This document shows positions 37,582-42,491 of a DNA stretch of 64,000 nt, piece by piece. The position numbers and the translations under genes are program-made. How positions within the stretch are numbered: the first letter of the stretch is position 1; the number at the start of each line of letters is the position of its first letter. The stretch comes from Burkholderia cepacia GG4 (GTDB taxonomy: Bacteria > Pseudomonadota > Gammaproteobacteria > Burkholderiales > Burkholderiaceae): the NCBI RefSeq assembly GCF_000292915.1, contig NC_018514.1, forward strand, positions 2,790,001 through 2,854,000. The letters are read 5' to 3'. The notes under the pieces are model-generated. The model saw only the letters and a program-made list of their open reading frames with translations. It was not told the DNA's origin and made no database searches.

Positions 37582-37619
37582 CAGTTATTTCTCTCTTGAC
37601 AGAAATAACTGAAATAACT
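37582..37619. promoter_or_regulatory. Operator 1: inverted repeat upstream of the GbsR-type regulator
   Basis: CAGTTATTTCT (37582-37592) and AGAAATAACTG (37601-37611) are perfect 11-bp arms around an 8-bp spacer; a further GAAATAACT follows at 37611-37619. The core TATTTCT-N8-AGAAATA recurs at 38212-38233 before the next operon. Position 13-50 bp upstream of the regulator start suggests autoregulation. Confidence 0.75.
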
Positions 37620-37631
37620 AGATTTCACGAC

Positions 37632-38165
37632 ATGGAACTCACACCGATTGCCGAACGATTCATTCTCCACTGGGGCGAAATGGGCTCACGGTGGGGCGTC
37701 AACCGCACCGTCTCGCAGATTCACGCGCTGCTTTACCTGGCCGGCCGGCCGATCGCGGCCGACGAGATCGCCGAGACGCTCAGCGTCGCACGCTCCAACG
37801 TCAGCACGAGCCTGAAGGAGTTGCAGGCGTGGCGGCTCGCGAAGGTCGTGCATGTGCTCGGCGACCGCCGTGACCACTTCGAGACGTCGACCGACATCTG
37901 GGAGTTGTTCAAGCTGATCGTCGAAGGGCGGCGACAACGCGAGATCGAGCCGACGCTCACGGTGCTGCGCGATTGCCTGACGAATCCGGAGATCGCCAAC
38001 GAGAACCGCGAGACCGAACAGCGCATCCGCGACACGCTGGCGTTCGTCGAGACGCTGACGACCTGGTCGGACGAGATGCTGCGGCTCAAGCCCGACACGC
38101 TGATGAAGGCGCTCGGCATCGGCGCGAAGATCAGCCAGACGGTCAGGCGCAAGCCGTCGAAGTAA
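37632..38165 (+). CDS. GbsR/MarR-family transcriptional regulator
   Basis: A 177-residue regulator. It begins MELTPIAERFILHWGEMGSRWGVNRTVSQIHALLYL (in two blocks), then GRPIAADEIAETLSVARSNVSTSLKELQAW, a winged helix with recognition helix ARSNVSTSLKEL, and a C-terminal helical dimer region. The N-terminal H/G-W-G-x-x-W/G pattern is that of GbsR-type MarR relatives, known in Bacillus for choline sensing; the ligand here is unknown. Two matching operators flank the gene, one before its own start and one before the following four-gene operon, so it probably controls both. A terminator separates it from that operon. Confidence 0.9.
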   Translation: MELTPIAERFILHWGEMGSRWGVNRTVSQIHALLYLAGRPIAADEIAETLSVARSNVSTSLKELQAWRLAKVVHVLGDRRDHFETSTDIWELFKLIVEGRRQREIEPTLTVLRDCLTNPEIANENRETEQRIRDTLAFVETLTTWSDEMLRLKPDTLMKALGIGAKISQTVRRKPSK

Positions 38166-38179
38166 GCGGTAGCGGAAGT

Positions 38180-38202
38180 GCGGGCAGACAGCCCGCTTTT
38201 TT
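38180..38202 (+). terminator. Intrinsic terminator after the GbsR-type gene
   Basis: GCGGGC-AGACA-GCCCGC followed by six T residues, 14 bases after the stop. It makes the following operon dependent on its own promoter, which carries operator 2. Confidence 0.88.
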
Positions 38203-39561: not shown

Positions 39562-40028
39562 ATACCTATCTCGTCATCAAGGCGCTTCATATCCTGTCCT
39601 CGGTGCTGCTGGTCGGCACGGGATTCGGCACCGCGTTCTACCTGTTCTTCGCGAACCGCACGCGCTCGGTGCCCGCGATCGCGGCCGTGTCGCGGCTCGT
39701 GGTGCGCGCGGACTGGTGGTTCACGACGCCGGCCGTGATCTTCCAGCCGGCGTCCGGGCTGTGGCTCGCGCACACGGCCGGCTGGCCGTGGCATACGCCG
39801 TGGCTCGTTGCGTCGATCGTGCTGTACGCGATCGCCGGCGCGTGCTGGCTGCCGGTCGTATGGCTGCAGCTCGAACTGGCTGCGATGGCGAAGCTCGCGC
39901 ACGTGAACGGCGCCGCCGCGTTGCCGCAACGGTACTGGCGCTATGCGAAGCGCTGGGAGCTGCTCGGTTATCCGGCGTTCGTCGCGATGCTGGCCGTCTA
40001 TTTCCTGATGGTGGTCAAGCCGATGTAA
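39558..40028 (+). CDS. DUF2269-like integral membrane protein
   Basis: A 156-residue protein with four membrane helices: YLVIKALHILSSVLLVGTGF, a second around FTTPAVIFQPASGLWLA, WLVASIVLYAIAGACWLPVV and LGYPAFVAMLAVYFLMVV. The K-x-x-H-I-L-S/A-x-x-L-L-V-G-T-G opening with its membrane His, and the R-x-Y-x-R-Y-x-K-R-W loop, fit the DUF2269 family of unknown function. Its ATG overlaps the stop of the upstream gene (ATGA), so the two are translationally coupled and may form a complex. No catalytic motif is seen. Confidence 0.85.
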   Translation: MNTYLVIKALHILSSVLLVGTGFGTAFYLFFANRTRSVPAIAAVSRLVVRADWWFTTPAVIFQPASGLWLAHTAGWPWHTPWLVASIVLYAIAGACWLPVVWLQLELAAMAKLAHVNGAAALPQRYWRYAKRWELLGYPAFVAMLAVYFLMVVKPM

Positions 40029-40125
40029 GTGCGCCGCCGCCATACGGGAATGGCGGTGCGGCGCAGTCGAACGCAGTCGATCGATCGTTTCACGATGCTG
40101 GCAATAAAAAGAAGGAGTGCAAATC

Positions 40126-40995
40126 ATGAGATCAAGTGAACTGGTGCTGTACTTCGACGGACGGTGTCCGTTGTGTGTCGCGCAAATACGGCGTCTCGGG
40201 GCCCGGGACGCGCGACACCGGCTGGCTTTCGTCGATATCGCCGAGCCGGGCTTCGATCCGGCGCCGCTGGGCGTCGACCTGTCCGCACTGAATCGCGAGC
40301 TGCACGCGCGCTTGCCCGACGGACGCATGCTGACCGGCGTGGACGGCATCCTGGCAGCCTATACGCTGGTCGGGCGCCGCTGGCCCGTGTGGCTGCTTCG
40401 CGTGCCGGCCATGCGCAAGGCGCTCGCGCCGCTATATCGTCGCTTCGCACGCAACCGGCATGCCGTTTCGCGCTGGCTCGGCCATCATGCGCCAGCGCGC
40501 TGCGACGGGGCGGCGTGCGGGTTGGGCGAGTCTGCCGACGGCACGGGGGCGGAGCGGTCGGTGGGCGACCGCGCGCGCCGCACCGTGGTGCGCTGGATGT
40601 ACGGCACGGCGATCGTGCATCTGCTCGTCGGCGCGGCCGTTCCGTGGGGCGCCGGCGCGGCGTGGCTCGACGCGTATCACCGCGGCGTCGAGCTGTATTT
40701 CTGGGCAGGCGCGGCGCCCGTGGAGGCGCGTGCCCAGCAGATCTGGTGGATGGCCTTGATCGGCGCGACGGTCCAATGCGCGTCGGTCTGGATGCTGGCG
40801 CTCGTCCACCTCGGTAACCGGCTGCGCAGGCGCGAAGTGTGGGGATGGCTGCTGGCCGGACTGTTGATCTGGGCGCCGCAGGACATGCTGTTGTCGTTGC
40901 AGGCGCAGGTATGGCGCCACGTGGCGATCGATGTTGCCGCGCTCGTCGCGATGGTGCCGCCGCTGGTCTGGCTGTGGAGGAGGGATACCGTATGA
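40126..40995 (+). CDS. DCC-type thiol oxidoreductase (DUF393/YuxK) fused to membrane helices
   Basis: A 289-residue fusion. The first about 110 residues are a thioredoxin-like DUF393 domain: LVLYFDGRCPLCVAQIRRLGARD has the D-G-x-C-P-L-C motif and ALNRELHARLPDGRMLTGVDG follows as in YuxK. From about residue 150 four hydrophobic helices form a membrane part that resembles the DoxX-like or DUF1206-type bundles of the neighbours. The usual DUF393 protein is stand-alone and about 130 residues, so the fusion is uncommon. A strong AAGGAG precedes the ATG. It overlaps the next gene by ATGA. Probably a redox protein acting at the cytoplasmic membrane face. Confidence 0.85.
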   Translation: MRSSELVLYFDGRCPLCVAQIRRLGARDARHRLAFVDIAEPGFDPAPLGVDLSALNRELHARLPDGRMLTGVDGILAAYTLVGRRWPVWLLRVPAMRKALAPLYRRFARNRHAVSRWLGHHAPARCDGAACGLGESADGTGAERSVGDRARRTVVRWMYGTAIVHLLVGAAVPWGAGAAWLDAYHRGVELYFWAGAAPVEARAQQIWWMALIGATVQCASVWMLALVHLGNRLRRREVWGWLLAGLLIWAPQDMLLSLQAQVWRHVAIDVAALVAMVPPLVWLWRRDTV

Positions 40996-42491
40996 ACACC
41001 TTGCCTGCTTTCGACTGGGCGCTCGACCTGCTGATCGTGCAGGGCGCGATGGGCGCATTCGATACGCTTTATCACCACGAACTCACGCAGGACCTGCCGC
41101 ACCGCCCGCGCGCGCGGCTCGAGCTGGCGATACATGCGGTGCGTTCCGTGCTCTACGGTCTCGTGTTCGCATCGATCGCGAACGTCGCCTTGCACGGCGC
41201 CTGGGTCGCGGTCCTCACGGCCGTGTTACTCGTCGAAGTGGTGCTCACGTTGTGGGATTTCGTCGTCGAGGACCAGAGCCGCAAGCTGCCGGCGACCGAG
41301 CGCGTGCTGCACACGCTGCTGGCCGTCAACGGCGGCGCGCTGTTCGGGATGATCGCGATGCAGCTGGCCGCGTGGGCGCACGAACCGACCGCGCTGCGGG
41401 CGCTCGACCTCGGCTGGCGCGGCTGGCTGCTCAGCGTGTTTGCCGTCGGCGTGACGGTATCCGGTCTGCGCGACGCGATCGCCGCATGCCGCATCGCACG
41501 GCGCGCGCTGGTCGCCAATCCGTTCGCGGGGCTGCCACCCGGCACCGTGCTGGTCACCGGCGGGACCGGCTTTATCGGTGAAACCCTCGTGAACCAGCTG
41601 CTCGATGCAGGGCATACGGTCACGTTGCTGGCGCGCGATCCGCTACGCGCGGCGTACCTGTTTCATGGCCGCGTGCGCAGCGTGACGTCCGTCGAACAGT
41701 TGCAGCCGCACGAGCGTTTCGACACGGTCGTCAATCTCGCGGGCGCGCCGGTGCTGGGCGCGCGCTGGAGCAAGCGCCGGCAGGCGTTGCTGCTTGCCAG
41801 CCGCGTCGGCGTCACGCAGTCGCTGATGCGCTGGGTCGACACCGCCGAGGTCAAGCCGCGCACATGGATCCAGGCATCCGCGATCGGTTACTACGGCGTG
41901 CGGCCGGGCGACGAACGGCTCGACGAGGGGAGCAGCGCCGGCACCGGTTTCATGTCCGAGCTGTGCCGGCAGTGGGAGCAGTCCGCGCAACCGCTCGAGC
42001 GCCATGGAGTCCGCGCGGTGGTGCTGCGGCTGGGCATCGTGTTCGGCCCCGGCGGTGCGTTGCGCCCGATGCTGTTGCCGCATTACTTCGGGATGGGCGG
42101 CCGATTCGGCGACGGCGCGCAGGTGCTGAGCTGGATTCACCGGGACGACGTGCTGCGGATCATCGCGCGCGCGATGTCGACTCGGCGCATGCACGGTGTC
42201 TACAACGCGGTCGCGCCCGCGCCATTGACCCAGCGCGAGTTCGTCCAGGTCGTGGCGAAGGTGCTGCGCCGCCCGGCCTGGCTGCACGTGCCGGCCGCGC
42301 CGCTGCGCGTGGCGATGGGCGAGATGGCGGAACTGCTGCTGGACGGGCAGCGGGTGATGCCGGCGCGGCTGCATCAGGACGGATTCATGTTCCGGTTCCC
42401 GGCGGCCGAGCCCGCGCTGCGTGACTTGATGAATCGGCCGCACGCCGATTTCGCACACTCGGCCTGCGGTTTTCCGCGCGCTCGTGTATAA
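40992..42491 (+). CDS. TIGR01777-family SDR epimerase with an N-terminal membrane domain
   Basis: A 499-residue fusion. The first about 165 residues form a membrane domain of about four helices, opening [23 protein letters not shown]. The rest is a full TIGR01777/SDR39U1 (YfcH-like) protein: [69 protein letters not shown] and the DUF1731-like tail ending near RDLMN. It lacks a clear Y-x-x-x-K, as is common in this atypical group. It is the last gene of the operon, coupled by ATGA overlap to the DCC oxidoreductase. Two epimerase-like SDR-membrane fusions in one operon suggest a modification of a membrane molecule; this is inference. Confidence 0.88.

What the first reader, a model, noticed from the sequence alone, without database searches (positions are those of the whole stretch)
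37582..42491. Regulated four-gene membrane-redox operon with two matching operators
Seen in sequence: a GbsR/MarR-type gene is flanked by two operators of the same architecture, TATTTCT-N8-AGAAATA (37586-37607 and 38212-38233), with a terminator between. The following operon encodes an SDR fused to a DoxX-like domain, a DUF2269 membrane protein, a DCC (CPLC) thiol oxidoreductase fused to membrane helices and a TIGR01777 SDR fused to membrane helices; two junctions are ATGA overlaps. Inference: one membrane complex carrying out a redox or epimerisation step on a membrane molecule, induced when the regulator binds an unknown ligand. I know of no described function for this set.
Basis: partly seen in the sequence, partly recalled or inferred. 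Interest (0 to 1): 0.72.

Follow-up and report, generated by a model that had tools for sequence, protein, structure and literature searches.

The report
Repressor-linked regulon of unstudied membrane proteins
A bacterial gene switch related to ones that control a backup respiratory enzyme sits beside, and by shared DNA landing sites appears to control, an unstudied set of membrane proteins whose job is still unknown, two parts of which match no catalogued domain.

Summary
Both operators are exact and are the only such sites in the 6.47 Mb genome. The regulator (37632-38165) is GbsR-type and forms a branch among CydE/CioR-like regulators, which repress cytochrome bd. Its longer operator, TATTTCTGT-N4-ACAGAAATA, shares the TTTC-N10-GAAA frame of a footprinted CydE site; two recognition-helix residues differ between the branches. 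In 15 whole genomes all 29 operator matches lie by the regulator; in 5 genomes where the TIGR01777 unit is unlinked, all 14 lie at the regulator's locus or before that unit. SDR-DoxX, DUF2269, DCC and TIGR01777 are therefore very likely one regulon. The exact four-gene order is a Burkholderia form; elsewhere the parts are shuffled, split or lost. The membrane halves of the DCC and TIGR01777 proteins have no credible Pfam or solved-fold match; the latter has an invariant, cytoplasm-facing His/Glu/Asp cluster that suggests a metal site. Repression is inferred from homology; inducer, chemistry and complex are inference. Nothing I saw in eight full-text searches describes this set.

The parts
37586..37607 (.). 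operator 1 (TATTTCTCTCTTGACAGAAATA), before the regulator gene
   Evidence: site 1 within 2 mismatches of TTTCTGT-N4-ACAGAAA in 83 of 88 A53-type regulator loci, 0 of 1127 control windows
37596..37624 (+). sigma-70-like promoter of the regulator: -35 TTGACA (37596-37601) inside operator 1, 17 nt, -10 TAGATT (37619-37624)
   Evidence: 1 found, 0.5 expected in shuffles; TTGACA lies inside site 1 in 50 of the 83 loci with a site 1
37632..38165 (+). GbsR-type MarR-family regulator, CydE/CioR-related, recognition helix ARSNVSTSLKEL
38180..38203 (+). terminator-like hairpin between regulator and operator 2
   Evidence: a hairpin plus T run by a simple rule in 37 of 59 loci with a site 2, without a shuffled control
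38212..38233 (.). operator 2 (TATTTCTGTCATTACAGAAATA), before the SDR-DoxX gene
   Evidence: site 2 in 59 of 88 loci
38248..39561 (+). SDR (GxxGxxG, YxxxK) fused to DoxX_3; possible start GTG 38254
39558..40028 (+). DUF2269 integral membrane protein with invariant His11
40126..40995 (+). DCC1-like thiol oxidoreductase (DGRCPLC; Cys14 and Cys17 in 42 of 42 non-redundant rows) fused to a helical membrane domain (DCCm, about 40558-40992) with no Pfam match
40992..42491 (+). membrane domain TMN (40992-41528, five helices, invariant His/Glu/Asp) fused to a TIGR01777-type SDR (about 41532-42491)

Best explanation
Regulation (most likely, about 0.85): the regulator is a dimeric GbsR-type autorepressor derived from the CydE/CioR group. 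It binds TATTTCTGT-N4-ACAGAAATA over its own -35 box (operator 1) and just upstream of the SDR-DoxX start (operator 2), so its own gene and the four-gene operon are silent until a signal releases it. Its operator marks essentially this gene set and nothing else in the genome. Signal (inferred, weak): probably a small molecule or metal change linked to impaired respiration or to sulfur/metal stress, by analogy with CydE (sulfate) and CioR (cyanide-induced; its authors suggest zinc or iron). Enzymes (inferred, about 0.35): the products act together at the cytoplasmic face of the inner membrane on a membrane-embedded substrate (lipid or quinone-like). NAD(P)H-dependent SDR domains are tethered to membrane domains; the TMN domain carries a candidate carboxylate/histidine metal site on the same side as its fused SDR; DCC supplies a CPxC thiol couple. 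Shown: operators, their uniqueness and conservation, gene sharing. Homology-based: repression and binding. Inferred: ligand, metal site, substrate, complex.
For: Genome-wide operator scans: 29 of 29 matches in 15 genomes lie within about 1.5 kb of the regulator, reversed-pattern control 2; 14 of 14 in 5 further genomes lie at the regulator locus or at the unlinked DCC/TIGR01777 unit, control 1. Site 1 in 83 of 88 loci, control windows 0 of 1127. Of 8 genus genomes without the regulator 0 have an intact DUF2269 (1 fragment), versus 4 of 4 tested with it. The CydE footprint TATTTCAGAAATTTCTGAAAGTTCA has the same TTTC-N10-GAAA frame, found upstream of 16 of 22 cyd-linked and 79 of 82 module-linked regulators. 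Positions 53/60 are A/S (module) versus S/G (cyd). Of 48 A53-type loci fetched by the regulator, 42 carry SDR, DoxX, DUF2269, DCC or TMN and 3 only DUF4166; 0 carry cydA; of 25 S53-type, 22 carry cydA and 0 a module gene. Invariant catalytic-looking residues; topology.
Against: I found no binding, expression or enzyme data for this set. Three A53-type loci (L118, L120, L129) have a CydE-like TTTCAG operator and eight could not be called, so residues 53/60 do not fully determine the site, and the two residues track one clade, so shared descent explains part of the correlation. L062 and L063 have no clear operator. Site 2 was not found in 29 of 88 loci. CydE's second footprinted site is unlike the first. 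A Pseudomonas-type group keeps DCCm-TIGR01777 with neither regulator nor operator in view. Several Burkholderia lack DCC-TIGR01777 (L034, L035, L037; chimera in L036), so it is dispensable. The metal site rests on conservation and helix layout only; no fold relative was found and the internal repeat I suspected failed its test.
Confidence: 0.6

Rival explanations
1. The regulon is real, but the proteins are separate steps of a lipid-modifying pathway rather than one complex; DUF4166, saccharopine-dehydrogenase-like and methyltransferase neighbours in other taxa are further steps.
For: Gene sets vary and are mixed and matched; DUF4166 recurs beside these genes (Pfam-confirmed in L124 and L141; by tblastn in 6 of 48 loci); single loci add a methyltransferase (L114) or a Sacchrp_dh_NADP protein (L051).
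Against: Fusions and ATGA overlaps hint at close physical coupling.
Confidence: 0.35
2. Only SDR-DoxX and DUF2269 are the regulator's true targets; DCC-TIGR01777 is an independent passenger.
For: SDR and DUF2269 are the commonest partners (32 and 31 of 48 loci; TMN in 8 of 48); DCCm-TIGR01777 stands without the regulator in the Pseudomonas group.
Against: At unlinked sites the DCC/TIGR01777 unit carries its own operator while the regulator is elsewhere in the same genome (5 genomes).
Confidence: 0.12
3. The regulator is an activator, or the operators bind another factor.
For: No direct data; operator 2 is not placed over a clear promoter (one search finds none there).
Against: Operator 1 overlaps the -35; the four GbsR-type members studied by 2018 are said to be repressors (passage of PMC6207618), and CioR is too (passages of PMC11837568); operators track the regulator gene.
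Confidence: 0.08

Closest known systems
CydE (Alishewanella, PMC6096048) and CioR (Chromobacterium violaceum, PMC11837568), GbsR-type repressors of cytochrome bd
   Same: Same protein group by description and context, gene-proximal autoregulated layout; operator frame TTTC-N10-GAAA (CydE site 1); recognition helix of cyd-linked relatives almost identical. The CydE and CioR proteins themselves were not aligned here.
   Different: Targets are SDR-DoxX/DUF2269/DCC/TIGR01777 instead of cydAB; operator arms TTTCTGT instead of TTTCAG; A53/S60 instead of S53/G60; own clade.
Choline-sensing GbsR / CudC
   Same: GbsR-type; weak CudC profile match (46.7 bits); MJ223 structure 1ku9 is a relative.
   Different: Far below the CudC cut-off of 218; no betaine genes among the adjacent genes identified.
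TIGR01777 / YfcH, ThyD
   Same: SDR half passes the TIGR01777 cut-off (310.9 against 207.35).
   Different: Below the ThyD cut-off (269.6 against 400); carries an extra N-terminal membrane domain. A TIGR01777 gene of Avibacterium appears in a table of biofilm-increasing insertions (passage of PMC13119452); its domain make-up was not checked.
DUF2269; PuuD/DUF989 urate oxidase membrane domain
   Same: DUF2269 at 194.7 bits; a published distant DUF989 similarity, E 0.15 (passage of PMC4562309).
   Different: The window's protein is 156 aa with only the DUF2269 match; the similarity is too weak to assign function.

Membership tests
GbsR-type MarR regulators | MarR-type winged helix and relation to MJ223 | tested here: met
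   MarR_2 37.9 bits against 27; 1ku9 E 2e-11
CydE/CioR | adjacent cytochrome bd genes | tested here: not met
   no cydA hit within 5.5 kb of any of 48 A53-type regulator loci
CydE/CioR | operator frame TTTC-N10-GAAA | tested here: met
CydE/CioR | TTTCAG-N6-CTGAAA arms and S53/G60 | tested here: not met
   window has TTTCTGT/ACAGAAA (site 2) and A53/S60; 20 of 25 S53-type loci have the TTTCAG type
CydE/CioR | acts as a repressor | not testable with these tools
   needs EMSA and expression assays
choline regulator CudC | NF047500 cut-off | tested here: not met
   46.7 against 218 bits
DoxX_3, DUF2269, DCC1-like | Pfam gathering scores | tested here: met
   77.5/25, 194.7/28, 83.5/27.8 bits
DCC thiol oxidoreductase | conserved cysteine pair | tested here: met
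   C14 and C17 in 42 of 42 non-redundant rows; activity not tested
TIGR01777 | NCBIfam cut-off | tested here: met
   310.9 against 207.35 bits
ThyD | NCBIfam cut-off | tested here: not met
   269.6 against 400 bits
membrane di-metal enzyme (TMN domain) | metal-ligand residues clustered in space | tested here: inconclusive
   residues invariant in 41 of 41 non-redundant rows, mostly at ends of helices 1-4 on one face; distances not measured, no fold match

The most novel reading that the evidence does not exclude
The TMN domain is a new membrane-embedded metal-dependent oxidoreductase, fused to its own NAD(P)H-binding SDR and run together with a DCC thiol couple, SDR-DoxX and DUF2269. It forms an unknown lipid or quinone redox system, switched on by a repressor lineage that was taken over from control of the bd-type terminal oxidase.
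Probability: 0.28. Interest if true: 0.8.

Novelty: new variant of a known kind. Interest (0 to 1): 0.62.

Why it matters
It ties at least four protein families without an assigned physiological role that I could find (DUF2269, SDR-DoxX, the DCC membrane fusion, the TIGR01777 membrane fusion) into one regulon with a defined DNA site, so one regulator deletion plus metabolomics or lipidomics could reveal what they do. It also suggests how a respiratory-oxidase repressor lineage changed targets while keeping its operator frame, and it points to two membrane domains without a credible Pfam or solved-fold match.

Tried and rejected
Internal duplication of the TMN domain, suggested by eye (two ExxxH segments): half-against-half profile alignment scored 3.1, no better than 30 column-shuffled controls; dropped.

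Fold relatives: Foldseek against PDB gave nothing credible for TMN (best E 0.59) or DCCm (best E 1.8). A PDB sequence search for TMN gave none; it was not run for DCCm. Weak Pfam hits among the members of A2 and A3 are scattered (best: DUF2619, E 0.00032, in 1 of 28 DCCm members) and not taken as real. A 26-residue CruF match (E 0.0047) was not followed.

FabV and GST as parts of the system: both flank the locus in Burkholderia, and by tblastn were seen beside it only in that genus among the loci read; treated as neighbours.

Choline/betaine function: rejected on the CudC score.

A first count gave SDR in 33 of 48 loci; removing cross-hits to the TIGR01777 SDR gave 32, the number used.

Papers: searches. 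Read as passages only: PMC11837568, PMC6207618, PMC6096048, PMC4562309, PMC8612252, PMC13119452, PMC9439231, PMC11267869 (the last three mention a TIGR01777 or DUF2269 gene in a table or gene list); all others were seen only in listings.
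Full report
OBSERVATION. Operators at 37586-37607 and 38212-38233 are exact. A scan of the whole 6.47 Mb genome with TATTTCT-N6-10-AGAAATA finds only these two. A terminator-like hairpin follows the regulator gene. The overlaps ATGA are at 39558-39561 and 40992-40995. Families are confirmed by Pfam and NCBIfam.

OPERATOR. Comparison across loci extends the site to TATTTCTGT-N4-ACAGAAATA. In 15 genomes of 8 genera (4.6 to 8.7 Mb), chosen because they carry the regulator, WATTTCTGTN4ACAGAAATW with up to 2 mismatches gave 29 matches; by coordinates all 29 lie within about 1.5 kb of the regulator gene; the reversed control pattern gave 2. 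Among 88 A53-type regulator loci, site 1 is within 2 of 14 mismatches in 83 and site 2 in 59, against 0 of 1127 control windows. In 50 of the 83, site 1 contains TTGACA, the -35 hexamer; in the window the -10 TAGATT follows after 17 nt (one promoter-like site where 0.5 were expected, so conservation carries the weight) and the predicted transcript start falls at the ATG, so the regulator mRNA may be leaderless (inference).

REGULATOR. It matches MarR_2 and the GbsR-type structure MJ223. Searches of 299 genomes of the family and 398 of the phylum found relatives in 96 (E up to 1e-5) and 65 (E up to 1e-12). I fetched 73 of these places for reading: 40, 20. Twenty-two relatives, 40-51% identical, lie near cytochrome bd genes. 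In a tree of 76 rows (rooted at the midpoint, for drawing only) the 48 module-linked rows and 5 'other' rows form one branch (99/95); cyd-linked rows lie outside it in several groups. Of 48 A53-type loci fetched by the regulator itself, 42 carry SDR, DoxX, DUF2269, DCC or TMN, 3 only DUF4166, 1 only a small membrane protein seen elsewhere before SDR-DoxX (L044), and 2 none of these (L049, L147); 0 carry cydA. Of 25 S53-type loci 22 carry cydA and 0 a module gene.

LINK TO KNOWN REPRESSORS. CydE of Alishewanella (passages of PMC6096048) was footprinted on TATTTCAGAAATTTCTGAAAGTTCA and is released by sulfate; a second protected site there is unlike it. CioR of C. violaceum (passages of PMC11837568) represses cioRAB, and cyanide induces it, probably indirectly. 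Both sequence types share TTTC-N10-GAAA: 16 of 22 cyd-linked, 79 of 82 module-linked and 6 of 9 other regulators have it within 130 nt upstream. The recognition helix is ARSNVSTSLKEL here and SRSNVSIGLKEL in cyd-linked L065: position 53 is A in all 83 module rows (window included) and S in all 22 cyd rows; position 60 is S in 98% and G in 91%. Operator calls: A53 rows 77 TTTCTGT type, 3 TTTCAG type (L118, L120, L129), 8 undecided; S53 rows 20 TTTCAG type, 5 neither. The clade structure means descent, not only selection, can produce this pattern.

ONE REGULON, EVEN WHEN SPLIT. A scan of named genomes with the TMN profile found 348 relatives, of which the best 80 were kept. All 80 have a hit to the TIGR01777 SDR directly after TMN; 68 have DCCm upstream within 170 nt; 34 have the regulator, and 34 of those 34 have an operator; 6 of the 46 without a nearby regulator still have one. 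Five of these six genomes (Andreprevotia x3, Jeongeupia, Burkholderia sp. Ac-20379) were scanned for both. Each has a module-type regulator elsewhere with its own operator(s) and SDR gene (plus DoxX and DUF2269 in four; the fifth contig ends inside the SDR gene), and all 14 operator matches in the five genomes lie at those two places; control 1. The sixth (L220) has a regulator elsewhere, but its operators were not scanned genome-wide. Four of the five also carry a second, cyd-linked regulator without this operator. This is the strongest evidence that the genes work together.

GENE SETS. The window's order (regulator, SDR-DoxX, DUF2269, DCC-fusion, TIGR01777-fusion) is seen in 17 of 19 named Burkholderia loci L151-L169, a set found through TMN; L156 starts inside the operon and L152 gave no hit to the DCC N-half. 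Elsewhere: SDR-DoxX-DUF2269 without DCC or TIGR01777 (18 of 48); DCC-TIGR01777 after the regulator (L066, L070); TIGR01777 with DUF4166 (L058, L060, L141); DCC facing away with a third operator-like site (L039, L040); membrane halves as separate small genes (L122: DCCm, TMN, SDR-DoxX, DUF2269); SDR and DoxX as separate genes (L059, L112, L117). DUF4166 is a recurrent extra partner (Pfam-confirmed in L124 and L141; others by tblastn). Starting instead from DUF2269, 34 of 274 genomes of the class had it; of 20 places read, 13 showed an SDR or DoxX neighbour by tblastn and 6 a regulator. Of 8 genus genomes without the regulator, none has an intact DUF2269 (one has a fragment); all 4 chosen with it do. 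Pseudomonas loci and Bordetella genomosp. 4 keep DCCm-TIGR01777 with no regulator in view; in the three read (L186, L205, L210) a hydrolase/PPDK-like protein follows (Pfam on L205 only).

PROTEINS. Non-redundant alignments show catalytic-looking conservation: DCC Cys14/Cys17 42 of 42; SDR Tyr136/Lys140 43 and 42 of 45; DUF2269 His11 31 of 31; TMN D24, H29, E30, E44, H48, R51, E82, D89, E93, D94, R97, E103, H107 41 of 41. The TMN model (pLDDT 90.2, pTM 0.83) has five helices; most of the conserved residues sit at the end of helix 1, start of 2, end of 3 and start of 4. Mean Lys+Arg counts are 2.47 and 2.47 in the two loops next to them against 0.0-0.21 on the other side, so they probably face the cytoplasm, as does the fused SDR. 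This looks like a metal site, but side-chain distances were not measured. DCCm models well too (pLDDT 92.8). Neither has a convincing Pfam family or a credible PDB fold match.

MECHANISM. Most likely a repressor dimer holds both promoters off until a stress-linked ligand or metal releases it, and the products then carry out NAD(P)H- and thiol-linked chemistry on a membrane-embedded molecule at the cytoplasmic face. The first half rests on homology and comparative genomics; the second is inference.

LIMITS. Species names of G genomes are withheld. The literature library holds only open-licence papers; absence of this set from print means absence from what I saw of the eight searches listed.

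Noticed in passing
L036:5982-6986: In one genus relative (G240) the DCC protein runs in frame into the tail of the TIGR01777 protein, a 334-aa chimeric frame that looks like a deletion; other relatives (L034, L035, L037) show no DCC or TIGR01777 hit.
   Followed up: partly
L205:9443-11884: Pseudomonas DCCm-TIGR01777 pairs read here are followed by an 814-aa type of protein joining an alpha/beta hydrolase to PPDK_N and PEP-utiliser domains.
   Followed up: no
L038:6618-6989, L043, L046, L047, L055, L044: A small membrane protein (about 113-150 aa, motif around LCGT--RA-FW) with no Pfam match in the one scanned (L038) follows the regulator's second operator, often just before SDR-DoxX.
   Followed up: partly
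L147:after the regulator gene: The frame that follows the regulator there looks by eye like a DUF3429 membrane protein (recalled name, no profile search).
   Followed up: no
36269-37471: FabV-type enoyl-ACP reductase diverges from the regulator; among the loci read the pairing was seen only in the window's genus.
   Followed up: partly
37596-37632: The regulator's predicted transcript would begin at its start codon (leaderless); in most printed relatives with TTGACA inside site 1 it sits 35-37 nt before the ATG (L061 is an exception at 71).
   Followed up: partly
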